Assembly (NCBI GenBank): GCA_016213865.1
Contig: JACQZL010000130.1
Coordinates: 1-13,794 of the forward strand
DNA: 13,794 bases
Direction of reading: 5' to 3'
From: Candidatus Rifleibacteriota bacterium
GTDB lineage: Bacteria > UBP17 > UBA6191 > JACPRK01
Part shown: one piece after another, positions 1 through 13,794 of the stretch
Position numbering within the stretch: the stretch's first letter is position 1
Layout of the letters: each line of letters begins with the position of its first letter
Made by a program: the position numbers and the translations under genes
The notes under the pieces: generated by a model
Told to the model about the DNA's origin: nothing
The model's database searches: none
Seen by the model: only the letters and a program-made list of their open reading frames with translations

Positions 1-571
1 ACACGGGGATGTCCCTGGCGCTGCCAAAGGTCTCGATGGTGCCGTTCGCCAGGATGCGGCGGATCCGCGAGTGACCGCGATCGATGATGTAGAGGTACCC
101 TCCGGGGCCGTACGACAGGCCGGTCGGGTACATGAGCGTGGCCGTCATGGCCGGCCCGCCGTCTCCGTGCTCGCCTGCCTCCGTGGTCGACGTCGTCCTC
201 GCCCCACCAGCCACGCTGTACAACTTCCCGCTGGCCAGGTCGAGGCGCCGGACCCGGTGCCCAGCGAACTCCGAGACGAGCACGTCTCCGTTTCGATCCA
301 GGAGCATGCCGCCCGGGCCATTGAGGTAGGCATTTCGCGAGGCCGTGCCGTCAGCCGAGTAGCCCCAGGAGCCCTGGCCCGCGAGGACCTCGATGCGGCC
401 TGACAGGGCATCGACGCGGTCGATGCGACCCGAGTAATGCTCGGCGATGTAGAGGTTCCCCGCGGCATCCGGGAAGGCTGCGAAATCCGTATCCAGGGCG
501 GCGGCCGTGGCCGCTCCGCCAGAGTGAGGACTGCCGCACCCACCGCCGGCCAACGTCTCCACGACCGTGTC
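1..571 (-). other. NHL beta-propeller, first three blades (continues outside window)
   Basis: Residues 4231-4420 and beyond. Three blade-like repeats are seen. The first has TLAGGG and GNLYIAEHYSGRIDRVD with EVLAGQG. The second has GPGGMLLDRNGDVLVSEFAGHRVRRLD with SVAGGA. The third has YPTGLSYGPGGYLYIIDRGHSRIRRI with IETFG. The pattern A.L..P.G...D..GNLYIAD....RIR.V is that of NHL repeats. A closed propeller normally needs about six blades, so at least 150 further residues are expected past base 1. Confidence 0.85.
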
Positions 572-3500
572 TTCCATGTCGGCGACCCTCACCTCGACCA
601 AGGTCGAAGCAGTGGCCTGGGTGCCGGCGTCATCGGTGGCCGTCAACGTGAAGACGTAGACACCCGGGGTCTGCGGGGCGATGAACCGCGCCCGGCCGTA
701 CTCGACCGAGGTAAAGACCACCGCGGCGGCGCCGGCAGGACCCGAGGCCTGCGACCAAACCAGGCTGGAAACCGTCCCATCGCTATCCTGGGCCCAGCCG
801 TTCAGGACGACCTCGGTGCCCGGATAGACGCGGCTGTTGCCGCCGGCAGTGACGGTGGGCGGCTGGTTCCCGACCACCTGGACCACGCCCGCGAAGCCGG
901 AGGCGGTGCAGGTGACGCCGCTGACCGTATCGCGGCCCCACACCTCGACCCGACCGGTCGTCCATCCGATAGCCGCGGTCGAGGCCGCGCTGACGTCGAA
1001 GGAGAGATAGGTCGAGGAACCGCCGTAGACCATCAGGCCGCCTGTCGAAGGCTGAGTAACCCAGGAAGCCACGACCGCCGGGTTGGAGTACCGCAACTGC
1101 GCCGACAACACTTCGGCCGTGGCGGAACCAGAGGCATTGCTGACAGGCAGCATCAGCCGAAGCGGCCCGGGCACGCGCATGCTGAGCGTCACCGGAGGTG
1201 CCGGGGCGACCGACAATGACGACGGCCCAAAGTCGGCTACCTCCATCTGGTAGAAGCCCACGTTGTTGGACTCCGAGGTCTCTTCCACCTGCGAGTAGGC
1301 GTCGGCAGAAAGACGTACGTAGTACCACCCCACGTCCACGACCTGGGGGATTGGGGCCAGGACTTCGAGGGAACGCGATTCACCCGCGGCCAGCGGCGCC
1401 ATCTGCTGGTCCGCCAGCCACCAGACTTGATCGCTGCCCGTCGTGCCAGGGAGCGGTCCACGCGACAGCTCGAAGCGGTTGGTGAAGGTCACGCCGTCGG
1501 TCGTCGGGCCGTTGCCCGCGTTGTAGACCGAGGCGCTCAGCGAGACCGAGTGCCCGCGATTGGCAATGCGGGGCCCGCTGACCCAGTTGACGGTCAAGTC
1601 TGCGGTGGGAAGCTCCGCATCGACGAGGATCGGCCTGGCCCACACGTTGTTTCGCTCGTTCGATTCGGCGATGACGTTGTCGAGATCGGCGATCATACCC
1701 AGGCTGTACTGGCCGGTCGTGATCGACGAATCGACGTAGGCCGACACCGTGACCGTCCGGGTCTCTCCCGCGGCCATCGAACAGACGTAGCTGTCGCCCA
1801 GGTAGCGGTCGAGATTCGTGACCGCACTGTCCTTCGACAGCACGAAGCGCACGGAGAAACACCCGGAAGCCTGCTGACCCTGGTTGGCCAGCACTCCAGT
1901 GAACTGGCAAGTCCGTCCCTGCCGGGCTACCGGCGGCGCGTAGAGGTCGACCGCCACGAGGTCGGCCGGCGAAGTGGTGCCGGTTGCGGGGTCGGAACTG
2001 AAGGCCCAGACCGCATTGCGTCCATCGGCGGGGTCGCCGAAGCTGTTCTCGAAGTCGGCCGAGGCGATGAGGTAGTAGTTGCCCGGTGCCAGAGCCGGCA
2101 GCCAGGCCCACGCGCTGAGGTTTCTCACCTCGCCCGAGCGAACGTCCAACTCGCCCATGTGCCAGGTCCACTGGTCATCGCTGGATGCCGCAGTGTCCTC
2201 GGAGATCAGCAACTGCGTCCAGAAGTGAACGGGAACCGGTGAGGTCGTTCCTTCGTAGCCCACGCTCCAGCTCACGAGCTGACTGTTGGCGGCCGCAACG
2301 GTGGTCGGGGCCTGGTGGAAAGTGCTGACCAGTCGGCCTGTCTGACCCACCGGGAGCTTCGCGGCGTCCAGGTAGTACAGCCCGACGTTGCCGTTGATCG
2401 TGATGAAGTAGCGGCCTGCCTGCCGTGCGGTGAGGGTCCTGCCAATTGCAAGCTCCGCAGCAGTCTGTCCGGAGTACCAGCTACGAACACCGCGATAGAC
2501 CTTGCCGTCGGGTGTCGTCACCAGCAGATCGACCCACCGACCGTCCCGGCGTGACAGCTTCAGGCTCAGGGTCTCGCCCTCGAGCAAGTCGGCCCTGAAG
2601 CAGTCCGTGTCGTAGGCGCTCGAGGTCGTTCCGGTCGTCGGCGCCACCGCCTGGATGGATAGCGTTTGGTGCCCCAGGGGAAGCTGCGCTGCCTGGTCGG
2701 TCGTCTCGTTCGGTTCGAACGCGTCGGACGCGATCGCCTCGATCCGCAAGGGCTGGGCCAAGAGGTTGTTCTCCTCGTCGGCCTCGGCGACCTGGTTGGC
2801 TGCGTCGACCACCGTTCGGACGTAGTAGGTCGCGGGGGTCACGGCCGGAACGGACGTACCCAGTTGGGTCCACACCGACGACCCAGGCCAGACCTGCCCG
2901 TCGAACTTCGCCCGGCCCAGGTACGGGTCGCCGGTTGCCGGTCGCGTGGCATCGCGTGACAGATAGAAGTCCACGGCAAACGACCCCGCAGTCAAATCGC
3001 CCTGGTTTCGGACAGTCGCCGATGGCCAGAACTGCTCGCCCACGTAGGCGGTCCCGTAGATCCCGCTCAGATCGGCCACGAGATCCGGGGCCGCCTGGGA
3101 CGGGCCCTGCACCCGCAGGCCGTAGCGGCCCGTGCCCGTGGGACTGTTGTGGCGCACCATCACGAAGTAACGGCCTGTGACCGTGACGTCGTAGGCAATG
3201 CGGGAAGCGGCCCCCAGTCCGGAGGCGTCGTCGTTGTACCCGAGCTGGGTCACGCCGTCCCTTCCGTAGAGGTACAAGACCGAGTCGCTCAGGGTATAGA
3301 GCCGCGTCTCGATCGTGTAAAGCCCCGGGGTGCGGGCGGTGAAGTAGAAGTAGTCGACATCTCCGGCCCGCTCGACCTCGCCATAGGCGGTTCCGGTGGA
3401 GGTGCCGCTCGTGGTGACCGAGACCTGGTCCCTGTAGTCGAGCCGCACCTGCGCTGCCGTGTTGGGATGGTCGTCCCGCGCCAGGATCTGCACCGGAGCG

Positions 3501-6500
3501 GTGCAGATGGCAATGTTGTTGGCCCGGGTGACTTCGGCGCAGGCCCCTGCCGACTGGGGGTTGACGATCATCCCGACGTAGTAGGTGCCCTCCGGGAGGG
3601 TGCCGGTCACCCAGCCGGTGGTCCGCAAGGAGAGCGTGCCGGCCGCGTCGAGGCAGAAGGGGACCCACGCCAACCGGTGGTCGGTCTCGGAGATCACCGG
3701 ATCGGGCGACAGCACGAACTGCACCGAGGAGCATCCGTTGAGAAGACCGCTGTTCCCGATCTCTGCCGACAGGAGCAGCTCGTTGCCGAGCCCAGTGGAA
3801 GTGACGAGCGGCCTGACGGACTGGGCCACGAAATCGGGCAGGGAGGGCTGGGTTACCGTGAAGGGAGCGGCGAGCTGGCGCGCGTTGTTCCCCTCATTGG
3901 TCTCGAGAACGTTGGCATCCGAGTCGGCCAGCACACCCAGGTAGTAGGTCCCCGACCCGACGGTGGAAGGCAGCCACGCCCACGGAGTGACGGTCACCGT
4001 GTCGCCGGAAGCAAGCTCGGAGACCCACCAGTTTCCCAACTCGGCGGACAGGCCGTCGAGGATCGGTGTCTGCGACAGCTTGACCGCAACCTGGAAGCTG
4101 CCGGCCCCGCGGAGACCCGCATTTGACACGACAGCTGTGACCTGGAATCCCGAACCGATCGAAGCGGTGCTGGGGCCCACGAACTGGGTGACCTGCAGAT
4201 CCGGCGCCTGGCCGGATGCCTCGTCACGGAACGCGAGGACCTGGAGGTTGCCGAAGTTGTTCAACTCGTCCGTCTCGACGATGTCATTGAGCGGATCAGC
4301 GGCCATCACGAGGTAGTACGCCCCGGGCTCGACGGGCGGCATCCGGAACGTGGAACTGAAGACCGCCGGTTGGTACGGCTCCACGGGCGTGAAGCTCCAC
4401 CTGAGGATGGGCCGATCCAGGTCGTCGTACACCGCGTCCCTCGAGAGGACTCCACTCAGCGAGAACGCCACCGGGATCGAGGTCGCGTTGGCGCAGGTCA
4501 CGGACACCTCGGCGTAGGCTCCGGCAGCGACCGTGGTCTGTTGCGACTGCACGTTCGACACGGCCACGTCGACCAGAGACCCGGCGCGTGCAATGAAGAC
4601 GTAGAGCGAATAGGTGCCGATCGAGCCACCGGCGTACACGACGTGGGGACCTGCCGTCCTTGCGGTACGCGTCACCCCCGCCAGCCCCGCCACTGCACTG
4701 CCGGCGGAGCTGCGGCCATCGGGCTCCGTCAGTTGCAGCCAGAGGTAGTTATTCGGAGCGCAACGCGCCACCACCGAGAGCGTGTCGCCCGCGTTCAGGT
4801 CGACCGTGAAGAAGTCATTGTCGCCCGCCTGCAGGGTCAAGTCGTAGTGACCCGGCCCAATTCGGATCGCGGCCTCGGCGGTCTCGTTGGGCTCGTAGGC
4901 GTCAGGGCCGAGGTGCAGCACCCAAACCTCGGCCAGAGCCGTGTTGTTGGTTTCGTTCGACTCGGGGACGGCATTCCGCGGGTCGACGGCGACCTCGAGG
5001 CGGTAGGCCCCCGTCGCCAGGGTGGTCGGCAACGTGCTCCCGACCCCCACCCACTGGCCCTGCCCCGAGGCGATGGAAGACGCCGTCGTGCTGCCCAGGA
5101 GGATGTTCACGAGTTGGCCGGACGTGGCAGAGTCGCGGAGGTAGAAATCGACCGCCACGGTCGTCGACAGCCCGTTGCCCGCATTGGAAACGAGGGCCTC
5201 GAACCACTGCGGCTGGCCAGAGTAGAGCGTCCCCGGGTCCCGGACACTGTCGACCCTGAAGTCCGGGGTCGACTGCTCGGTGCCCGTCACCAGGACCCGA
5301 TACGTGCCAGTGCGAGAAGAGCTGTACTCGCGGACCATGAGGAAGTAGCGTCCAGGGACCGTCAGGTTCCAGACGATCCGGGACGAGAGGCTTCCGCCGG
5401 AGTCGTCGTCCTGGGTCAGGACCGTCGTTCCATCGCGGTCATACAGGTACAGGTACGAGTCGCGCATCGTCACGAGCTGCGTGAAGCACACGAACTGGCC
5501 CGGCCGGGTCACGTCGAAGTAGAAGAAGTCGGCATCGCCAGCCAGTTCGACATTGCCCGTCGCGGCGGCGCCGTTGATCTCGATCCGGTCGGAGGTAGTG
5601 GTGTCCGAGGCCCGATTCGGGTGATCGTCCAGCGCCGAGTCCAGGCGGACCGTGCCGGCGAGCAAGGCCACATTGTTGCTTTCGCTCGCCTCGACCAGCC
5701 TGCCCGAGGGGTCGACGATGGCCCCGAGGTAGTACGCGCCCGTCGCCAGGCCCGCGGGCGCCGTGACCGTCACGATCACCGTCGTCGTCGCCTCCGAGCC
5801 CAGCACGGAGATCGTGCCCACCCCGAGGAACGTGTCACCTGGGTTCACATTGCTGTCCGTGGAGAGGTAGAAACCGACCTCGACCTGCGACGCAACGGTC
5901 GTGGAGAGGTTGGTCACCGTGGCACTGACCAGGGTCGGGCTCCCCATCTCCAGGTGGTCCGGAGCGGAGACCGCGATGGCGGCCGGGTCGGGCAGAGGCG
6001 TCGGGGCCCGGACCACGAGCTGCGTCGGCGCGGTGGTCGCGTTGTTCCCCTCGTTCGATTCGGCAACATAGCCGTGGATATCGGCGATCGCGCCCAGGTA
6101 GTACGTACCTGGCAACACGTCCAGCGGGATGAAGAGCGAGGACGACATCGAGGTGCTCTGCAGAGGCGCCAGCGACGGGGTGTAGCTCGACGCCAGATGC
6201 CTGTCCAGCGTGGATATCCTGGGCTCCGAGGACAGGTACCACCCGGTATAGCTGTACTGGGCGGTCTGGTCACCCGGATTGCTGATGAGGGCAGCGGCCT
6301 GCACGTAACTGCCAGCTTCCACAGCCGTCACCGGCAGGGTCTGGTTGACGGCCACCAGGTCCGGACCGCCGGTCGTGACGGGGGGCCCGACCACGGAGAT
6401 GGGGATACTGCGCAGGTTGTCGGTTTCCTTCGCTTCCGCGAGCGCATCGCGCGAGTCGATCTTGAGGCCCGCGTAGTACGTGCCGGAAGCCAGCGCGCCT

Positions 6501-9500
6501 GGCACGTACATGCTCCAGGAGGAGGAACCGATTGGGGAGCCCGCGGACAGCCACTGTTCGTACTCGCTGTAGGAGCCGTTGGCCCCCTCCGCCGAATCGG
6601 AGATGAAGAACCTGAGGTAGGTCCGCACCGGGAACGAGGCGGGCGCCACGACCCCGGCCGACCAGCTCGTGTAGATGTAGCTGCCGGCGGAAACCGTCGA
6701 CGTATTGGTCACTGTGAACCCAGCCGCGTACACGTCCACGCCCGTCGCCTTCTGGAAGTCCAGGCTGTACTCGCAGGGACTCCCGTACACCTGCAGGATG
6801 TAGTCACCTGTCTGCCTGGCCGTGAACGAGCGATACGGATCGAGGGTGCGACCGCCCGGTACCGAGGCGAAGCTGAAGCTGGGCGTCCACCCGGAAGTGG
6901 CCTGCAAGCCGAGCGTGACTGTCTCGCCCACTTCCAGATGAAGCTTGAAGTAGTCGACGTCGGTCACGGTGCTCAGGGTCGCCGAAGTGAGCCCCGTGCC
7001 CAGCAGCGAGGCCGTGGCAATGCTGTCATTGGGCTCGAACGGGTCAGGCAGGATCCTGATAACGGTGACGGGGTAAGTGGCCGCGTTGTTCCACTCGCGG
7101 CTCTCCGTCACGGCACCTGTGGAGTCGACCATCCACGCCAGCGTGTACGACCCTGGCGGAACGGTGGCCGGAAGCACCGCACTTGACGAGTAGTACTGCT
7201 GAGAACGAGCGGAGAGCCCCGAAATGACGACGTCGTGCAGCGCCATGGCCCTGGCGCGATCGAACGTCGAGCCCGGTGAGAGGTACTCGGTGAAGTGCAC
7301 CGGCGAGGCCAAGTCCGTGTCCCCGAGGTTCCGGGCGTAGGCAGAGCTCTCGAACGAAGAGCCCGCATAGAGGACAGAGGGCACGCTGTACCACACGGCA
7401 TCCAGGTCGAGGGCGGCCGTCGGGACCCACGTTGGCTGGATGGACGTATTGTTGGTCTCGTCCAGTTCCACCACGTTGCCCCAGGTATCGACTCGGGCCA
7501 CCAGGTTGTAGGCGCCCGGCAACAGGGAGTAGGGCAGACGGACCGTCACCGGAACCGCGACAGCCTGAGAGGCCCCTGGCGAGACCGGCGCCGACTGCCA
7601 CAGGTCCGTCGACCAGTACGAGCTGCTGCCGGTCGCCACGCCCGTCAGGGCGAGCGACGTGTAGAAGCCGCCCTGCGCATCGTCGTTGCCCAGATTGCTC
7701 AGCGTCACCCAGACGACGTTCGCCTCCTCCTTGGGCAACGTAGGCGGCGCCGCGACCGAGACGACCAGGTCTGGCGTCCCCCGCAAGCGAACGCCAAGCC
7801 CGTAGCTGCCATAGTTGTAGTTCCAGGGCGGGGGCTCGACGCGCGCATAGTAGCGGCCCGGGATCGTGAAGTTGAAGGCGAGCTGGGCCCTGTAGTTGCC
7901 GCCGCTGTTGTCGTCCGTCGCCAGGACGGTCGTGCCGTCGCGATCCAGCAGCGACAGATACGAGTCGCGGAGCGTGCCCGTGGTCGTGTAGACGCGATAC
8001 GTCCCGGTGGTCCCGATATCGAAATAGAACAGGTCCCGGTCGCCGTACTGCTCGATGGCGCCAGCCGCCGGCAGCCCACCGACAGCGATTGCCTCCGTGG
8101 GCCCCAGCGCCGCCACCGTGTCCGGGTGGTCGTCCACGACGTCGAATCGAACCTGTTGGCCGGCAGTCAGGTAGTTGTTGTCATCGCTGAGCTCGGCGAC
8201 GGTGCCGTTCGGGTCCACGTTTGCCTGCAAGGAGTACGAACCCGAAGCAGGCCCGTAAGGGGCCGTGAAGGTCCCGAACACCGTGGTGGTCTGCCCCGCA
8301 CCCACGGAGACCGAGACGTCCCCAAGGTCGTAGAAGCTGTGGAACTGCGGATTTAACAGAGTCCATCTGACCGCCACGTCAGTCACCGGGATCGTCGTGG
8401 GGTTGGCCACGACCGCGCTGACGACGATCTGGGAGCCGGGCCGGGCCGAGCTTGGACCGTCGACCCCCAACATGACCAGATCTGGCCTTGCGGCTACGGG
8501 CACCACGGTCACTGCCACGGTTCGCGTGGTCGCGTTGTTCTGCTCGTTCGACTCGGCAACATAGCCGTAGAAGTCAGCGATCGCTCCCAGGTAGTACGTC
8601 CCCGCCTGCAGGTTCTGATTCAGGTAGACGCTGGCTGTGGCGGTCATAGCTTGGGACGGCGCCAGCGAGTTGACCCAGGCGGATCCCACGTTGGCGTCGA
8701 GCACAGTCACTCGTGGTTCGCGGGACAAGTACCAGCCGACATAACTGGAATCCGCCCAGCCGTTCCCGAGGTTCCGGATCAACGCGGAGGCATAGAGATA
8801 CGTCCCCGCCGCGGCCGCCGTCACAGGCGCAGTCTGTTCGAAGGCCACCAGGTCCGGGCCGCTCGTCGTGATCGGCTGGCCCAGGACCGAGATCGGCGAT
8901 AACGCCTGATTGTCCGCTTCGTTGGCCTCGGCTAGCAGATCCGAAGGATCGACCTTGAACCCGGCGTAGTAAGTGCCGGAGGCCAGGGCATAGGGCACCC
9001 CGATACTCCAGTCGGTTCTCGAGCTCGGCGAATCCGAGCTCAGCGTCCAGTCGTACCAATCGTACCTGATGCCCATCCCGGCGCCGCTCGAGAGGAAGAA
9101 CCCGAGGACAGTCCGCACCGGGAAGCCGGCGGGCGCAGTCACGCCGGCTGTCCAGCTCGTGTAGAAGTAACTGCCCACCGACACGGTCGACGAACTGGTG
9201 ACGGTGAAGGCACTGGCGTGCACGTCGACCCCCGTGGCCTTGCGGACGTCCACCCAGTACTCGCACGGGCTGCCCTGGGCCCTCAGGAGGTAATCACCCG
9301 TCGCCTTGGCCGTGAACGAGTAGTAGAGGTTGACAGTGCCACCCCCGGGAACGAGGACGCAGGTCAAGGCCGGGGCGTAGCCCGAATAGGCACCCGACTG
9401 GATCGTGACCGTCTCGCCCGCCTCCAGGAACAGACGGAAGAAGTCGACGTCGGCCGCCGTGTGCAGGGTTGCCGAGGTCAGTCCCGTACCCAACCCCGAT

Positions 9501-12500
9501 GCGTGGGTCGCGCTGTCGTTCGGCTCGAGGCTGTCTGGCGCGATGACGACCACCGTCGTCCCGTACTCCAGCCGGTTGTTGACCTTGCTCGATTCGGTGA
9601 CCTGCCCGTCCGGATCGACTACCCAGGCGACGGTGCTGGGCCCAGCCGTCGCGGTCGAGGGCGCCGTGAGGGTCGCGCCGACGTAGAAGTTGGACCGCGC
9701 GGCCAGTCCGTTCAGGACAGTGGAGTGGAGTAGCACGGCTTGCGCCGGGTCGAAGGGCACCGCCGCACTGAGATAGGCGTTCACCTTCACCGGACCTGTT
9801 ACCGCCTCGTCCCCGTGGTTGTACACATAGACAGCAGACGAGAACGCGGACCCGGCATACACGGGAGAGGGCGGGTACTCGTACCAGCTCAGGCTCAGAT
9901 CGACCGGCGCCGTCGTCAGCGAGACCGGTGCGTAGGCCGAGTTGTTCGTCTCGTCCAGCTCTCCGACGTCGTTCCCGCTGTCGGCGCGGGCCACGAGATA
10001 GTAGTTGCCGGGCTGCAATTGAGGGACCTGCAGCGACATCGGCATGAAAACCGCCTGCGAGGTCCCGGGGGACACCGCTGACGACCAGTAGTACGTGTTG
10101 GAGGTGTGCAGCACGCTGCCAGACGTGTCCGAGCAGAGCGCCACCGACGTGTAGAACCCTCCGGACGTGGCGCCGGCCCCCAGGTTGGTGACGACTGCAG
10201 TCGCCAGGAGAGTCTGGCCCCTGGCAGCCACCGTCGGGCCATGGACGGCCACCTGGAGATCGGGCATCCCACCCTGGAGAATGACTCCAACCCGGTAGCT
10301 TCCAGTTCCGGAATGACCGAAAGAGTAGACCCGGGCATAGTACCTGCCCGGCGTCAGCGCCCGCGTGATCTCGGAAGCCATCCCGGGACCGCTGTCGTCA
10401 TCATAGGCGATCACCGTGGTGCAGTCCGAGGCGAAAAGGTACAGGTAGGAATCGCCCAGGGTCACCAGTTCGGTGTACAGCTTGTACGTGCCCGGCTCCA
10501 CGATGTCGAAGCTGAACATGTCCTCGTCCGAGCTGGGCATGATCACGCCGGTAGCGAGCGGTCCATCGGGGACGATGACATCGGACGTGGTCAGCAGAGA
10601 ACACGTGTTCGCGTGGTCGTCAGCCGGGGCTGTCGTGACGGTCACGGGCGCATAGCTCGAGTTGTTGGTCTCGTCCAACTCGCCGATGGAGTTGTTGACA
10701 TCCGCCCGGGCCACCAGGAAGTAGCCGCCGGGCTGGAGGACGGGCACGGCCATGGAAACCGTGACCTGAACGGCGTTCGATGCCCCAGGCATCACAGGCG
10801 ACGACATCGTGTTGAGGCCGGAGGCGTGCGAGACGGTTCCGGTGCTGTCCGAGCAGAGCGCGACCGACGTGTTGAACTGACCCGAGGTCGCATCAGTGCC
10901 CAGGTTGGTGAGAAGTGCCGTCACGGACAGCGTTTGCCCAGGCACCGCGGACGACGGCCCGACGATCGCCACCTGGAGATCGGGCGTCCCGCTGGCGTTT
11001 GCCCACAGCCAGTAGGTCCCGGTTCCGGAGTGCGCGAACGAGTGGACCTTGAGGAAGTACGTGCCGGGTGTGAGGGACCGGGTGAGCAGTGAGGCCGCGC
11101 CTTCACCACTGTCGTCATCGCTGGCGATCACCGTGGTGCAATCCTGGTCGTACAGCCACAGGTAGGAATCGCCCAGCGTGCCCAGCGTCGTGTAGATCCG
11201 GTACGTCCCCGCCTCCGGGACCACGAAACTGAACATGTCCTCGTCCGAACTGGGCTGGATCTCGCCGCCCACGGCCCCCCCCCCCACGACAACGACATCA
11301 GCCGTGGTCAGCAGCGAACAGGTGTCGGAGTGGTCGTCGGGCGCGGCAATCGTGAACGCGGGACTGCGGGAGCTGGTTCCCACGGCGTTCGTGATGGCCA
11401 CTTTGTAAGTGCCCGGAGTGAGGCCCGCGGGAACGACCGTCACGATCTGGGCGGGAGAGGTCGTGGTCGTGACGTCGAACGGGGAGAGCGACACCGTGGT
11501 GACACCCGTGAGCGCGACGGCCGTCACGCCGTCGAAGCAACTGCCCAGGATCGTCAACGTCGTGGGAGCCGTGTTGAGCATGCTACTGGGCGACAGCGAC
11601 GAGATGTTCGCGACGCCTGGCAAATCGAGGATGCCTCGCGCAATGAAGACTTGCTGGATCTGACTGCGGTGCGAGCCGCCATAGAGGGTGTCGTCGACCG
11701 TCAACAGCGCGTTGGCGCCGTCGGCGAACGTCAGGTTGGACGTGTAGAGGAAGTGGCTCTCCAGCGCGAGCCGCAGGGAGACCTCGTTTCCGACCGCGTT
11801 TCGCAGCGCCCAGAGCGAGGCCGCCCAGATCTCACCGTCTTCGTGGACCTCGCCCGCCAGGTCTTCCGGGTAGTGCTTGGGGCTGTCCAGCCGTCGCAGA
11901 CACCGCCCGTTCCACGCCCACTCGCCCATGCAAGCAGGGTCCGGGTCCACTCCCCCGGCGTTGACCGCCTTTTCGGACGAGTAGACGCCTGCCAGGAAGT
12001 CCGCCCAGCCCTCCATGATGCCGCCGGTCTCCCCGGAGTAGCTCATCCCGCCGACCTGATTGTCCTGGGTCGCGTGGCCGTACTCGTGGACGACCACGTC
12101 GGCATCCTCGGCCAGGTCGGTCGTCCCGCCCCCGTCGCCGAAGTAGAGCTCGCGCGTGACCGGCGAGTAGAAGGCGTTGAGAAAGTCACCCTCGTGCGCG
12201 TTGACCGTCGTCACCCGATTGTTGGCGTTGGATACCTGCCCCCGCGCCTGGATGAACCGCTGGACCGAATCGAGGTGGTAGTAGCACATGACCTCCTCGA
12301 ACCGCTGGTCGGAGCGGTTGTAGATGAAGTCCTGCGTCGGCTCGTAGGCCCGGGTGACAGGGTAGGTGTTACCGTTCGAGCGGTCCTGCTGCGTCAGAGC
12401 ATCGGCGTACTGGCCTCGCAGATACCCCGAGCCGTCCAACCCCTGGAGCGTGACCGTCGAATAGGCCGGGCCGAAGACCGGCAGATCCTGGTTGGAGTTG

Positions 12501-13261
12501 TCTCTGATGGACGTGTCGCCCAGGACGACGACGGGGTTCGGGTCAAAGACCCGTCCCTGCTGGTAGGAGACGAGCAGATTTCGAGTCTGGAGCACCTGGC
12601 CGTCCTCGGCGCCCACCATGACCTCCCAGTCGGCGATGGGCTTGCGCACCGCCAGTTGGACACGCCACGCGACTGTTCCGGCTGGTCCGCTGGGGAGGAC
12701 GACCTTCTCTGCGGCTGCCGGGGCGCGCAGTCCCCCTTGGACCCCGACCGCGGCGCTGGCCGCCTCGAGGGCTTGCTGACGCGTCACCTTCCCGTCCGTA
12801 CCCACGATCTTGAGCAACGGGCGGCAATCGCTGACGGCGGCCTGGACCCTCAGTTTCGGGTCCACCGACACCATGACCGCCTGGCCATGAACGGGCAGGC
12901 CACGTTCGTACTGGCCGTACAAAAAGTGGATACCTGTCTTGGAAGTCACCTTCCGGACCAGCTTTCGGCCCGAGGAGACGACCGGTGCGCCGAGAAGGCG
13001 CGCGTGGGTCGCCAAGAACGAGGCAGCCACTTCATCAGGCGTGCGCCCGGAAGCTGTCGCCCTGGCGCCCCAGAGGGCGTGGACGGTGCCCTCCTGGGCC
13101 CCCGCGTACACTCGCCACTGGCCCTGGCTTGCGGACTGCAAGGTGGCCAGGTCAGCCGCCATTTGCGGCGTCTGCGGCCCGGCAAGAAGCCCGGCGGCCC
13201 CCAACGTCAGCGCCAGAATGGAAACAAACCAACCGTGAGTGAAGCCGCGTCGAACCATCAT
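1..13261 (-). CDS. Giant secreted M36 (fungalysin-like) metallopeptidase with PPC/CARDB/PKD/NHL modules, 3' end outside window
   Basis: Seen: one open frame of 4,420 codons from ATG at 13261 to the window edge, every codon read and no stop found. The start is chosen because a GGGGAG lies 6 bases upstream (13268-13273) and a signal peptide follows at once; a second ATG is the next codon. Order by residue: signal peptide 1-28 (MMVRRG, hydrophobic core FVSILALTL, no lipobox Cys); FTP/PepSY-like propeptide about 31-235; M36 catalytic domain about 236-545 (HEYGH 392-396, EGWAD 417-421); IPT/TIG 551-638; nine PPC and nineteen CARDB-like domains 641-4012; unassigned Ig-like 4013-4130; PKD-like 4131-4230; NHL blades from 4231 onward. 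Known: M36 enzymes are secreted endopeptidases made as proenzymes; PPC and CARDB are extracellular beta-sandwich modules, CARDB being considered adhesive. Inferred: a secreted or surface-displayed protease on a very long stalk or binding array. The substrate and the C-terminal sorting signal are not visible. Bacterial M36 proteins are usually several times shorter. No neighbouring gene is in the window, so no operon can be judged. Confidence 0.96.
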   Translation of the reverse strand, partial: MMVRRGFTHGWFVSILALTLGAAGLLAGPQTPQMAADLATLQSASQGQWRVYAGAQEGTVHALWGARATASGRTPDEVAASFLATHARLLGAPVVSSGRKLVRKVTSKTGIHFLYGQYERGLPVHGQAVMVSVDPKLRVQAAVSDCRPLLKIVGTDGKVTRQQALEAASAAVGVQGGLRAPAAAEKVVLPSGPAGTVAWRVQLAVRKPIADWEVMVGAEDGQVLQTRNLLVSYQQGRVFDPNPVVVLGDTSIRDNSNQDLPVFGPAYSTVTLQGLDGSGYLRGQYADALTQQDRSNGNTYPVTRAYEPTQDFIYNRSDQRFEEVMCYYHLDSVQRFIQARGQVSNANNRVTTVNAHEGDFLNAFYSPVTRELYFGDGGGTTDLAEDADVVVHEYGHATQDNQVGGMSYSGETGGIMEGWADFLAGVYSSEKAVNAGGVDPDPACMGEWAWNGRCLRRLDSPKHYPEDLAGEVHEDGEIWAASLWALRNAVGNEVSLRLALESHFLYTSNLTFADGANALLTVDDTLYGGSHRSQIQQVFIARGILDLPGVANISSLSPSSMLNTAPTTLTILGSCFDGVTAVALTGVTTVSLSPFDVTTTTSPAQIVTVVPAGLTPGTYKVAITNAVGTSSRSPAFTIAAPDDHSDTCSLLTTADVVVVGGGAVGGEIQPSSDEDMFSFVVPEAGTYRIYTTLGTLGDSYLWLYDQDCTTVIASDDDSGEGAASLLTRSLTPGTYFLKVHSFAHSGTGTYWLWANASGTPDLQVAIVGPSSAVPGQTLSVTALLTNLGTDATSGQFNTSVALCSDSTGTVSHASGLNTMSSPVMPGASNAVQVTVSMAVPVLQPGGYFLVARADVNNSIGELDETNNSSYAPVTVTTAPADDHANTCSLLTTSDVIVPDGPLATGVIMPSSDEDMFSFDIVEPGTYKLYTELVTLGDSYLYLFASDCTTVIAYDDDSGPGMASEITRALTPGRYYARVYSFGHSGTGSYRVGVILQGGMPDLQVAVHGPTVAARGQTLLATAVVTNLGAGATSGGFYTSVALCSDTSGSVLHTSNTYYWSSAVSPGTSQAVFMPMSLQVPQLQPGNYYLVARADSGNDVGELDETNNSAYAPVSLTTAPVDLSLSWYEYPPSPVYAGSAFSSAVYVYNHGDEAVTGPVKVNAYLSAAVPFDPAQAVLLHSTVLNGLAARSNFYVGATLTAPSTATAGPSTVAWVVDPDGQVTESSKVNNRLEYGTTVVVIAPDSLEPNDSATHASGLGTGLTSATLHTAADVDFFRLFLEAGETVTIQSGAYSGYAPALTCVLVPGGGTVNLYYSFTAKATGDYLLRAQGSPCEYWVDVRKATGVDVHASAFTVTSSSTVSVGSYFYTSWTAGVTAPAGFPVRTVLGFFLSSGAGMGIRYDWYDWTLSSDSPSSRTDWSIGVPYALASGTYYAGFKVDPSDLLAEANEADNQALSPISVLGQPITTSGPDLVAFEQTAPVTAAAAGTYLYASALIRNLGNGWADSSYVGWYLSREPRVTVLDANVGSAWVNSLAPSQAMTATASVYLNQNLQAGTYYLGAIADFYGYVAESNEQNNATTRTVAVTVVPVAARPDLVMLGVDGPSSARPGSQIVVSAVVANPTTIPVTDVAVRWTLLNPQFHSFYDLGDVSVSVGAGQTTTVFGTFTAPYGPASGSYSLQANVDPNGTVAELSDDNNYLTAGQQVRFDVVDDHPDTVAALGPTEAIAVGGLPAAGAIEQYGDRDLFYFDIGTTGTYRVYTTTGTLRDSYLSLLDRDGTTVLATDDNSGGNYRAQLAFNFTIPGRYYARVEPPPWNYNYGSYGLGVRLRGTPDLVVSVAAPPTLPKEEANVVWVTLSNLGNDDAQGGFYTSLALTGVATGSSSYWSTDLWQSAPVSPGASQAVAVPVTVRLPYSLLPGAYNLVARVDTWGNVVELDETNNTSIQPTWVPTAALDLDAVWYSVPSVLYAGSSFESSAYARNLGDTDLASPVHFTEYLSPGSTFDRARAMALHDVVISGLSARSQQYYSSSAVLPATVPPGSYTLAWMVDSTGAVTESREWNNAATYPVTVIRILPDPFEPNDSIATASLLGTGLTSATLSTVTDVDYFKLHLEVGETVTLGLQATSGWTPSFSFASVPGGRTLDPYRSFTARQTGDYILQVYGSPCEYSLDFQKATGVDVYAAGFTVTNTSTVSAGSYIYTSWSAGVVAPASFPVRTYLRFFISDSAEGANGSYSEYEQWLSAGSPIGSSSWSMYVPGALASGTYYAGLKIDSRDALAEAKETDNLRSIPISVVGPPVTTGGPDLVAVNQTLPVTAVEAGSYVQAAALISNPGDQTAQYSYTGWYLSSEPRISTLDRHLASSYTPSLAPLQSTSMSSSLFIPLDVLPGTYYLGAIADIHGYVAESNEGNNATTAPTQLVVRAPTPLPDPAAIAVSAPDHLEMGSPTLVSATVTNLSTTVASQVEVGFYLSTDSNVNPGDTFLGVGTISVLGSEATTTVIVTVTAPAGLATGAYYLGAIVDPSGRLVEASESNNVALLAGTVRLDSALDDHPNRASDTTTSDRIEINGAAATGNVELAGDADFFYFDVTRPGQFVCFTQLVTMRDSYLYLYDRDGTTVLTQDDDSGGSLSSRIVWNLTVPGRYFLMVREYSSSRTGTYRVLVTGTEQSTPDFRVDSVRDPGTLYSGQPQWFEALVSNAGNGLSTTVAVDFYLRDSATSGQLVNILLGSTTASSIASGQGQWVGVGSTLPTTLATGAYRLEVAVDPRNAVPESNETNNTALAEVWVLHLGPDAYEPNETAEAAIRIGPGHYDLTLQAGDNDFFTVDLNAGDTLSVVARCAPNNYLWLQLTEPDGRSSAGSAVAGLAGVTRTARTAGPHVVYAGGSIGTYSLYVFIARAGSLVDVAVSNVQSQQTTVAAGAYAEVSVTCANATSIPVAFSLSGVLSRDAVYDDLDRPILRWSFTPVEPYQPAVFSSTFRMPPVEPGAYYLVMAADPLNDIVETDELNNFGNLQVLAFRDEASGQAPDLQVTQFVGPSTASIGSGFQVTAVVSNAGLRGAGSFQVAVKLSQTPILDGLSAELGNWWVSELASGDTVTVTPWAWLPSTVGSGTYYLGVLADSDANVLETNEGNNARQLAAPFTVTQPSLPDFVAQSVRPLVTSTGLGNELLLSAEIGNSGLLNGCSSVQFVLSPDPVISETDHRLAWVPFCLDAAGTLSLRTTGWVTGTLPEGTYYVGMIVNPQSAGACAEVTRANNIAICTAPVQILARDDHPNTAAQVRLDYRDQVSVTTSGTSTGTAYGEVERAGDVDYFYFTARTPGLYTIETRLYTLSDSVLYLYGRDGVTQLGYNDDASGLGAASRIAYDVTVTGRYFVMVRHNSPTGTGRYGLRVQGPSQAAPDLVADLSGIYGTAYVGEQFWPSATVRNQGDLTAGSFAVDFYLSRDATRPATGDPYLGRAKFDGQVWPGSSVWTQLGTSVPAVTPATYYVRTVVDAANQVAEADEENNLLAQPLRIEAIASDAFEPNETTDQAAQLPLGHQTLSIQAVAPTTGTTSSAYDTDCFRADLLEGETLSLKLSRRDGRWVDLLVTTPDGKVYRGVRSWYSGQTAAELAIGRTLTARQAGRYFITINGNVGLYYLDAAKLPVGQTGRLVSTFHQAPTTVAAANSQLVSWSVGYEGTTSPVPVHFWTQLLISEDTAASSDDQWTWHMGELDVRSGEVRNLSAWAWLPALAPGNYYLIASADFENSFGDPADGRNAVWAFSSDPATGTTSPADLVAVDLYAPPVARQGRTCQFTGVLANQGQQASGCFSVRFVLSKDSAVTNLDRYLGDSYVCSMAAGETRTVTVSAYVDSSITTGQYSLGMIADLDNVIAESNERNNVWARPILVDAELPTADLTVNWVSGPRIANRGHSVSLSASVYNAGNGPTTDGVTFTNRFELSRGPLPGTTGSDQVWWLADQQMAPLAAGESRSLEVLAPIPQVVDVGWYYVRLSADAYSQVEETSESNNVGFYQMEVADFGPSSLSVAPAPPVTLSMRVPGPLRLMLPVSNASGSATAEVLSAQLRYSNPAVVASWVTQPSTGGLMVYGGSSTYLSFDVSAASTAAIGWTTGRVEVWGRDTVSGVTCTASGFAGVVQVVGNQPPTVTAGGNSRVYPGTEVVLNGWAQDSDGTVSSLVWSQASGPAGAAAVVFTSVEYGRARFIAPQTPGVYVFTLTATDDAGTQATASTLVEVRVADMEDTVVETLAGGGCGSPHSGGAATAAALDTDFAAFPDAAGNLYIAEHYSGRIDRVDALSGRIEVLAGQGSWGYSADGTASRNAYLNGPGGMLLDRNGDVLVSEFAGHRVRRLDLASGKLYSVAGGARTTSTTEAGEHGDGGPAMTATLMYPTGLSYGPGGYLYIIDRGHSRIRRILANGTIETFGSARDIPV
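572..871 (-). other. PKD-like domain
   Basis: Residues 4131-4230. It begins NQPPTVTAGGNSRVYPGTEV, followed by VLNGWAQDSDGTVSSLVWSQ and a closing TPGVYVFTLTATDDAG. This is the usual PKD/REJ pattern of NxxPxVxAG, DxDGxIxxxxW and GxYxFxLTVTDxxG. PKD domains are extracellular spacers, often found next to secreted peptidases. Confidence 0.85.
872..1225 (-). other. Unassigned beta-rich (Ig-like) segment
   Basis: Residues 4013-4130. It is rich in S, T, V and A with alternating hydrophobics (PLRLMLPVSNASGSATAEVL, TYLSFDVSAAST, GRVEVWGRD, one Cys in GVTCTAS). It has no E..E.NN ending and no DDxSG, so it is neither CARDB nor PPC by eye. It probably folds as a beta-sandwich joining the CARDB array to the PKD domain. 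I do not recognise the family. Confidence 0.5.
1226..3481 (-). repeat. Unit 4: PPC8-CARDB16-PPC9-CARDB17-CARDB18-CARDB19
   Basis: Residues 3261-4012. Domain starts are PPC8 3263 (DDHPNTAAQ, DVDYFYF, YNDDASG), CARDB16 3393, PPC9 about 3511 (AFEPNET), CARDB17 about 3641, CARDB18 3766 and CARDB19 about 3887. It follows the six-domain plan of unit 3; CARDB12 and CARDB16 share VDFYL. CARDB17 is longer and most divergent, ending GDPADGRNAV in place of E..E.NN. CARDB18 ends AESNERNN and CARDB19 ends EETSESNN. Confidence 0.78.
3482..5641 (-). repeat. Unit 3: PPC6-CARDB12-PPC7-CARDB13-CARDB14-CARDB15
   Basis: Residues 2541-3260. Domain starts are PPC6 2545 (DDHPNR, DADFFYFDV, DRDGTTVLTQDDDSG), CARDB12 2667, PPC7 2785 (AYEPNET), CARDB13 2897, CARDB14 3021 and CARDB15 3142. 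It has the same order as units 1 and 2 but lacks the second CARDB, so it is about 718 residues. CARDB ends read PESNETNN, VETDELNN and LETNEGNN; CARDB15 ends in a looser VTRANN. Confidence 0.8.
5642..8137 (-). repeat. Unit 2: PPC4-CARDB7-CARDB8-PPC5-CARDB9-CARDB10-CARDB11
   Basis: Residues 1709-2540. Domain starts are PPC4 1710, CARDB7 1831, CARDB8 1951, PPC5 2071, CARDB9 2171, CARDB10 2301 and CARDB11 about 2425. Position-by-position partners in unit 1 share short diagnostic strings: GGFYTS in CARDB2/7, LGTGLTSATL in PPC3/5, SPCEY in PPC3/5, KATGVDV in CARDB4/9, and GYVAESNE in CARDB5/10. The stretch 6039-6110 matches 8532-8603 at 62 of 72 bases (hand count), which indicates a fairly recent 2.49 kb duplication. 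Confidence 0.85.
8138..10624 (-). repeat. Unit 1: PPC2-CARDB2-CARDB3-PPC3-CARDB4-CARDB5-CARDB6
   Basis: Residues 880-1708. Domain starts are PPC2 881, CARDB2 1001, CARDB3 1121, PPC3 1241, CARDB4 1341, CARDB5 1470 and CARDB6 1594. PPC2 opens with DDHANT, PPC3 with LEPNDS. CARDB ends carry the E..E.NN signature (ELDETNN, TESSKVNN, AEANEADN, AESNEQNN, AELSDDNN). CARDB4 begins KATGVDVHA and CARDB5 begins GPDLVAF. The whole order recurs in unit 2 with an offset near 830 residues. Confidence 0.85.
10625..11341 (-). repeat. Unit 0: PPC1-CARDB1 half unit
   Basis: Residues 641-879. PPC1 (641-757) has PDDHSDT, PSSDEDMFSF, a strand of the form AGTYRIYTTLGTLGDSYLWLY, the acidic ASDDDSG, and LTPGTYFLKV with SGTGTYW. 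CARDB1 (760-877) has PDLQV, PGQTLSVTALLTNLG, LQPGGYFLVARAD and ELDETNNS. It is a close copy of the next PPC2-CARDB2 (residues 881 onward), offset 239 residues. At DNA level, 11295-11338 matches 10578-10621 at 37 of 44 bases by hand count. Confidence 0.85.
11348..11611 (-). other. IPT/TIG Ig-like domain
   Basis: Residues 551-638. The pattern ISSLSPSS, then TTLTILGSCF and TAVALTGV, then IVTVVPAGLTPGTYKVAITN and a closing SPAFTI is the usual IPT/TIG run (PxxG-type opening, TLTITGxxF strand, VPxGLxxGxYxVxVTN end). One copy only, between the peptidase and the PPC/CARDB array. It probably acts as a rigid spacer. Confidence 0.85.
11627..12556 (-). other. M36 fungalysin-like zinc peptidase catalytic domain
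   Basis: Residues about 236-545. GRVFDPNPV opens the domain as in other M36 enzymes. VVVHEYGHA contains the HEXXH zinc site (H392, catalytic E393, H396). GGIMEGWADF supplies the third zinc ligand, E417, 21 residues after H396 and in the EGxxD form of this family. Further family marks are NAFYSPVTRELYFGDGGG (362-379) before the zinc helix, VHEDGEIWAASLWALRNAVG (472-491) after it, and SQIQQVFIARGI (533-544) closing the domain. No key residue is missing, so activity is expected. M4 thermolysin is the nearest alternative, but the EGWxD and GEIWAxxLW elements favour M36. Confidence 0.93.
12557..13171 (-). other. FTP/PepSY-like propeptide region
   Basis: Residues about 31-235. Seen: TPDEVAASFLATHARLLG (74-91), the helix typical at the start of fungalysin/thermolysin propeptides; GLPVHGQAVMVSVD (121-134), which matches the FTP core pattern of a short strand, V.G..V.V.vd; VTRQQALEAASAAVGV (159-174), a PepSY-type helix; and DWEVMVGAEDGQVLQTRNLL (211-230), the closing strand pair. 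Known: this region acts as chaperone and inhibitor and is removed on activation. The border with the catalytic domain (GRVFDPNPV, about 236-244) is inferred from the usual M36 layout. Confidence 0.8.
13178..13261 (-). other. Sec signal peptide of the giant peptidase
   Basis: Residues 1-28. The N-region is basic (MMVRRGFTHGW), the hydrophobic core is FVSILALTLGAAGLL, and the likely cleavage is after A27 (LLA-G). There is no Cys after the core, so it is not a lipoprotein signal, and no twin-arginine motif of the SRRxFLK type. Export through Sec is inferred. The cleavage site is approximate. Confidence 0.85.
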
Positions 13262-13595: not shown

Positions 13596-13667
13596 GAGAG
13601 ACGATCCGTTGGGGTGTGAACGCAGAATCCGGGGAGCCGCATGACTGGGTGCGTCGTCCGAGGAGTT
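13596..13667. other. Intergenic stretch with no recognised feature
   Basis: Lies between the candidate -35 box and the inverted-repeat cluster. No convincing ORF, RNA gene or promoter was seen on either strand. Confidence 0.5.
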
Positions 13668-13762
13668 GTAGCGCGGGCCCCCTTCGACAAGCTCAGGACA
13701 TGCTTGTGGCCCGCTACGGTCGGCGGACCGCTTCCAAAGCGGGGGACAAGCCCCCGCGCTAC
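13668..13762. repeat. Nested GC-rich inverted repeats, likely dispersed intergenic element
   Basis: The outer arms GTAGCGCGGG (13668-13677) and CCCGCGCTAC (13753-13762) are perfect 10-base complements. Inside are three smaller hairpins: GTAGCGCGGGCC with GGCCCGCTAC (13668-13679 and 13708-13717, 2-base bulge); CGGTC-GGCG-GACCG (13717-13730); and GCGGGGG-ACAAG-CCCCCGC (13739-13757). The loop holds TTCGACAAGCTCAGGACA, a string I recall from dispersed intergenic repeats in many environmental genomes (from memory, not searched). It may be a REP/MITE-like element or a terminator region of the upstream gene. Confidence 0.5.
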
Positions 13763-13794
13763 TCGACTCCAGAGGCCAGTTGCGATTGTGGACC

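What the first reader, a model, noticed from the sequence alone, without database searches (positions are those of the whole stretch)
1226..10624. Higher-order repeat: four units of PPCa-CARDB-(CARDB)-PPCb-CARDB-CARDB-CARDB
The 8 PPC and 18 CARDB domains after the half unit are not randomly mixed. PPCs opening with DDH (881, 1710, 2545, 3263) and PPCs opening with EPN(D/E) (1241, 2071, 2785, 3511) alternate in fixed positions, each followed by a set number of CARDBs. This points to growth by duplication of whole 720-835 residue blocks, as in a designed stalk or array of binding modules, and suggests the two PPC types have distinct roles.
Basis: seen in the sequence. Interest (0 to 1): 0.75.

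Follow-up and report, generated by a model that had tools for sequence, protein, structure and literature searches.

The report
Giant protease with duplicated domain blocks
A very long, probably secreted bacterial protease carries a tail of repeated blocks of domains, at least two of which are copies of one whole block, much as in the muscle protein titin; it is a good new example of a known way proteins grow.

Summary
The minus-strand ORF is an M36 (fungalysin-type) metallopeptidase of at least 4,420 residues, cut off by the contig end. Its tail holds 9 PPC and 19 CARDB domains; without the half unit, 8 and 18, at the stated places. The two PPC types alternate and form separate groups. Units 1 and 2 are a block duplication: all seven positional pairs match (40-62% identity), and positional pairing is the best of 120 CARDB assignments. 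Units 3 and 4 keep the domain order, but beyond PPC-A, which is firm, positional signal is weak (PPC-B, CARDB-d) or not visible (other CARDBs). So "four equal units" is two clear copies plus two old, eroded ones. The half unit is not a remnant: it is the closest copy of the start of unit 1 (62%). Rooted PPC-A trees mostly put the root near units 3/4, far from the enzyme, which hints at growth beside the enzyme but does not show it. PPC has the fold of collagenase collagen-binding domains and CARDB is Ig-like. The likeliest role is a long multivalent arm tethering the protease to protein substrate; this is untested. Block duplication of domain repeats is known (titin, nebulin); this is a new member of that kind.

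The parts
2..13261 (-). Coding sequence of the giant M36 metallopeptidase, ATG at 13261, open at the contig end (at least 4420 aa)
   Evidence: (P0002, 4420 aa)
11630..12121 (-). M36 catalytic region with HEYGH (12074-12088) and downstream EGWADF (11996-12013)
   Evidence: Pfam PF02128; motif places
11351..11608 (-). IPT/TIG domain (weak match)
   Evidence: PF01833 E 8e-4, just under the curated cut-off
10622..11338 (-). 'Half unit' P0-C0: PPC-A + CARDB-a, closest copy of P1A-C1a (62% and 62%)
8135..10621 (-). Unit 1: PPC-A, CARDB a, b, PPC-B, CARDB c, d, e (residues 920-1748)
5630..8134 (-). Unit 2: same seven domains (residues 1749-2583)
3476..5629 (-). Unit 3: PPC-A, one CARDB, PPC-B, three CARDB (residues 2584-3301)
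1229..3475 (-). Unit 4: PPC-A, one CARDB, PPC-B, three CARDB (residues 3302-4050)
848..1228 (-). Unassigned segment after unit 4 (residues 4051-4177)
   Evidence: no Pfam match confined to it at E 0.1
590..847 (-). PKD domain (K319L-like)
   Evidence: PF22352
2..511 (-). Start of an NHL-type propeller, cut by the contig end (borders approximate)
   Evidence: PF25021, PF01436; NF035926 from residue 4287

Best explanation
It is a (probably secreted) zinc metallopeptidase of family M36 whose C-terminal tail grew by duplication of multi-domain blocks (PPC-A, CARDB, (CARDB), PPC-B, CARDB, CARDB, CARDB). Shown: block duplication of units 1 and 2, and duplication of the first PPC-A/CARDB-a pair into the 'half unit'. 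Inferred: units 3 and 4 are older copies of the same block, and the array grew at the protease-proximal side. Inferred: the tail is an elongated multivalent arm; PPC domains, relatives of collagenase collagen-binding domains, grip protein substrate while Ig-like CARDBs space them, holding the protease on its substrate. Because a seven-domain block was copied, adjacent CARDBs are only 21-31% identical, which fits avoidance of misfolding between neighbours.
Against: CARDB a, c and e of units 3 and 4 show no supported positional kinship, and 6 of 28 domains match one of 374 external domains better than any in the protein. Even CARDB-d: C1d and C2d match an external CARDB (P0102; 72.8 and 71.2 bits) slightly better than C3d or C4d (60-69 bits). 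PPC-B across units is only a little above external PPCs. Growth direction: 5 of 6 rooted PPC-A analyses, which share rows, root near units 3/4, one (P0095) weakly at P0; P3A and P4A pair in the PPC-only tree (84/89) and in the P0095 set (80/84), which is not the ladder. PPC domains are usually cleaved off after secretion, and in one serine protease they reduce catalytic efficiency (PMC3327674, passages). No substrate was tested; the C-terminus and any anchor are missing.
Confidence: 0.55

Rival explanations
1. Only units 1 and 2 (and the half unit) are block duplicates; units 3 and 4 were assembled piecemeal by duplication or capture of single PPC and CARDB domains, and share order by convergence or selection on spacing.
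For: U1/2 against U3/4 positional pairing is reached by 4-41 of 120 assignments; 5 of the 8 CARDBs in units 3/4 match external CARDBs best, and C1d and C2d match an external CARDB better than C3d or C4d; U3-U4 identities of c and e (27-29%) equal those of non-equivalent neighbours.
Against: PPC-A is one clade in all units, the order PPC-A/CARDB/PPC-B/3 CARDB is the same, CARDB-d is the best partner of CARDB-d within the protein in each unit pair of the z table, and U3/U4 positional pairing is best of 24.
Confidence: 0.28
2. The array is a surface stalk that only projects the protease away from the cell, with PPC and CARDB as inert spacers (periscope-like).
For: Long array of beta-sandwich domains with the catalytic domain at the N-terminal end; PKD and NHL domains follow towards the missing C-terminus.
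Against: Neighbouring CARDBs are unlike (21-31%), whereas neighbours in periscope proteins are highly similar (PMC8201768, abstract and passages); PPCs of some proteases bind proteins (PMC3327674, passages).
Confidence: 0.2
3. The repeat structure is an assembly artefact.
For: Single contig, one member sequence known.
Against: Listed repeat stretches of 68-300 nt differ by 16-40% at DNA level, lie in one open frame, and pN is below pS for U1/U2.
Confidence: 0.02

Closest known systems
M36 metallopeptidases with one PPC-CARDB pair (P0008, P0009)
   Same: Propeptide, M36, PPC-A type, CARDB in the same order; 40 and 37% identity over 71-72% of the query
   Different: One PPC and one CARDB, then a C-terminal segment without further PPC or CARDB hits; 1070 and 1064 aa
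Titin A-band super-repeats
   Same: Ordered blocks of two domain kinds repeated; likeness by position is clear only in some repeats (PMC10665226, passages)
   Different: Eukaryotic Ig/FnIII domains; here PPC/CARDB on a protease
Multi-domain duplication of domain repeats (nebulin unit of seven)
   Same: Autocorrelation peak at seven domains (PMC1553488, passages)
   Different: One domain family; here a mixed seven-domain block
Other CARDB arrays (P0099, P0005, P0104, P0107, P0003)
   Same: Periodic similarity at offsets 4, 6, 2, 2, 9 (at most 8 of 500 shuffles; 5 of the 21 other arrays with 8 or more domains)
   Different: Of the 116 other proteins scanned, 3 had both PPC types (order PB PA PA, no CARDB) and 3 had PPC-A with CARDB; none had both PPC types with CARDB
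Periscope proteins
   Same: Long tandem array of folded domains behind an N-terminal functional domain (PMC8201768, abstract and passages)
   Different: Their neighbours are highly similar; here adjacent CARDBs are 21-31% identical

Membership tests
Peptidase family M36 | Match to PF02128 above the curated cut-off, with HExxH and a downstream Glu | tested here: met
   58.6 bits against 23.3; HEYGH at residue 431 and EGWADF at 456
PPC (PF04151) | Sequence match and collagen-binding-domain fold | tested here: met
PPC (PF04151) | Binds protein or collagen | not testable with these tools
   known for other PPCs only (PMC3327674, PMC6168687, passages)
CARDB (PF07705) | Sequence match and CARDB fold | tested here: met
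Multi-domain super-repeat (titin/nebulin type) | Domains at a fixed offset more alike than neighbours | tested here: met
   offset 7, 0 of 500 shuffles; U1/U2 positional pairing 1 of 120; CARDB-only and PPC-only offset tests not significant
Multi-domain super-repeat (titin/nebulin type) | Positional kinship in every unit | tested here: inconclusive
   firm for PPC-A, weak for PPC-B and CARDB-d, not seen for the rest
Periscope proteins | Highly similar adjacent domains | tested here: not met
   adjacent CARDBs 21-31%, mean 26.8%, n = 10

The most novel reading that the evidence does not exclude
A bacterial protease tail that grew with polarity: new multi-domain blocks were inserted next to the enzyme, so the oldest copies lie farthest from it. 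The block copying keeps neighbouring domains unlike, and two PPC types inherited from before the first duplication serve as different grips at fixed intervals along a very long arm.
Probability: 0.25. Interest if true: 0.5.

Novelty: new member of a known kind. Interest (0 to 1): 0.35.

Why it matters
It is a clear bacterial case of titin-like super-repeat growth, on a protease, in which the order of duplications can partly be read off. If the arm binds substrate, it would be an example of a protease whose tethering valency is built by block duplication, and the PPC-A/PPC-B pair gives a direct test of whether two PPC types do different jobs.

Tried and rejected
Considered and rejected: the half unit as a leftover of an incomplete unit (it is the closest copy of P1A-C1a). 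Considered and left open: a 2 x 2 doubling ((U1,U2),(U3,U4)). U3-U4 identities are no higher than U1-U3, but P3A and P4A pair (84/89) and in the P0095 set (80/84), and where that pair had to be tested p-AU was 0.046 to 0.55. Considered: lower divergence of the centre of units 1/2 (PPC-B, c, d) as gene conversion; synonymous divergence is near saturation, so undecided. The single CARDB after PPC-A in units 3/4 aligns mostly with CARDB-b in the unit alignment, groups with b at 64/74 only, and pairs at up to 40% with C2a: not settled.

Led nowhere: the genome-contig scan gave one distant locus, L001; the genome behind it has six weak matches to unit 1, five in the CARDB d/e region and one to PPC-A at E 3e-5. 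The Rfam scan gave no match at the gathering level. Literature: CARDB with 'pre-peptidase C-terminal' gave one survey of serine proteases (search listing only); CARDB with 'giant' and 'metallopeptidase', with 'giant proteins' and 'bacteria', and 'CARDB domain' with 'Ig-like' and 'tandem' gave none. A paper on giant proteins of lactic acid bacteria (PMC12863079, passages) showed no comparable block repeat in the passages seen. The unit 1 model is of moderate confidence (pLDDT 69.5, pTM 0.40, four sequences), so its overall shape is not used. The 50 whole-model Foldseek rows shown have TM-scores of 0.20 or less and are not used.

Full report
What is there. The window is a 13,794-base contig that holds one long reading frame, on the minus strand from an ATG at 13261 (one search shows GGGGAG six bases upstream) and still open at the contig end. 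The protein is 4,420 residues long as known (P0002). Below, residues are those of P0001, which starts 39 residues earlier. The order is: hydrophobic N-terminus (read), weak propeptide match, M36 catalytic domain with HEYGH at 431, a TIG-like domain (weak), then 9 PPC and 19 CARDB domains, an unassigned stretch, PKD, and the start of an NHL propeller.

Checking the pattern. The domain table gives unit 1 = 920-1748, unit 2 = 1749-2583, unit 3 = 2584-3301 and unit 4 = 3302-4050. PPC-A is followed by 2, 2, 1 and 1 CARDBs, PPC-B always by 3. HMMs built from these domains find the same 28 domains. Of the 116 other proteins scanned, 41 had any hit; 3 had both PPC types (PB PA PA, without CARDB), 3 had PPC-A with CARDB, none had both PPC types with CARDB. 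Those proteins come from three searches limited in length range and number of candidates, so this is not an exhaustive absence.

How strong is the higher order. The best measure is the comparison of units 1 and 2. All seven positional pairs score 170-380, while none of 22 non-positional pairs of one family exceeds 128. For the five CARDBs the positional pairing is the best of 120. The tree joins b, c and d at 98-100, e at 86/90, and a with C0/C1a at 94/91. Over the whole protein the mean similarity peaks at offset 7 (135 against a background of 62; 0 of 500 shuffles). Tests on CARDBs alone, or PPCs alone, with a maximum over all offsets are not significant (224 and 482 of 2000); large offsets with few pairs are noisy. 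The DNA shows the block spacing: 300 nt at 71% at 2490, 127 nt at 72% at 2505, and 259 nt at 74% at 717.

Where the claim weakens. Units 3 and 4 share the domain order, but identities of their CARDB c and e with the equivalents in the other units (24-30%) are those of non-equivalent neighbours (21-31%). Positional pairing between units 1/2 and 3/4 is reached by 19, 14, 4 and 41 of 120 assignments, and between 3 and 4 by 1 of 24. AU tests do not reject clades a, c, d, e across units (p 0.12-0.20) and do not show them; grouping unit 2's CARDBs together is rejected (5e-52). C3c even joins the CARDB-a group at 84/83. Six of 28 domains, one in unit 2 and five in units 3/4, match one of 374 external domains better than any in the protein. 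Across all four units PPC-A is firm. CARDB-d is the best partner of CARDB-d within the protein, but C1d and C2d match a CARDB of P0102 (72.8 and 71.2 bits) a little better than C3d or C4d (60-69 bits). PPC-B of units 1/2 and 3/4 match at 30-37 bits, near their best external matches of 24-35 bits.

Order of events. The nine PPCs split into two types at 100/99. In a tree with 32 external PPCs the five PPC-As stay one clade at 99/99, and so they do in the five outgroup sets (86/96 to 100/99). The single-block relatives P0008 and P0009 are closest to the far units: their PPC to P4A, their CARDB to C3a. With them as outgroup the PPC-As form a ladder P4A, P3A, P2A, (P0, P1A), supports 97/96, 87/87 and 97/95. 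Of five further outgroup sets, two give the same ladder (one of them includes P0008, P0009 and P0095 again), two swap P3A and P4A, and one (P0095) roots weakly at P0 and pairs P3A with P4A. In the PPC-only tree P3A and P4A also pair (84/89). Adding the neighbouring CARDB leaves units 3 and 4 unresolved. So the half unit and unit 1 probably split last, and the array may have grown next to the enzyme; the direction is suggested, not shown. Synonymous sites are near saturation, so the duplications are old; pN below pS in units 1 and 2 fits selection on the protein.

Known or new. Domain repeats often expand several domains at a time, nebulin by seven (PMC1553488, passages), and titin's A-band has super-repeats in which positional likeness is clear only in some units (PMC10665226, passages). 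Five of the 21 other arrays with 8 or more domains also show periodicity (at most 8 of 500 shuffles, not corrected for many tests). Unlike periscope proteins (PMC8201768, abstract and passages), adjacent CARDBs here are only 21-31% identical. No paper on a PPC/CARDB super-repeat was found. The finding is a good new member of a known kind.

Noticed in passing
window 10274-10621 and 10991-11338: P0 and P1A share a pair of cysteines (TCSLL and DCTTV) that the other PPC-As lack (alignment), a possible disulfide gained in their common ancestor.
   Followed up: partly
window 3476-3844 and 1610-1972: CARDB C3e has four and C4d three cysteines, while 14 of the 19 CARDBs have none.
   Followed up: no
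window 13640-13794: GC-rich inverted repeats upstream of the gene (gcgggggcttgtcccccgc and others); the fold is not clearly better than shuffles (z -1.47).
   Followed up: partly
P0099 (named Myxococcaceae MAG, 2848 aa): 24 CARDBs with a strong period of four domains (0 of 500 shuffles).
   Followed up: partly
window 8864-9526 and 6371-7036: PPC-B and CARDB-c are the most alike pairs of units 1 and 2 (59-62%) while PPC-A, a, b and e are 40-45%; stronger constraint or conversion in the centre.
   Followed up: partly
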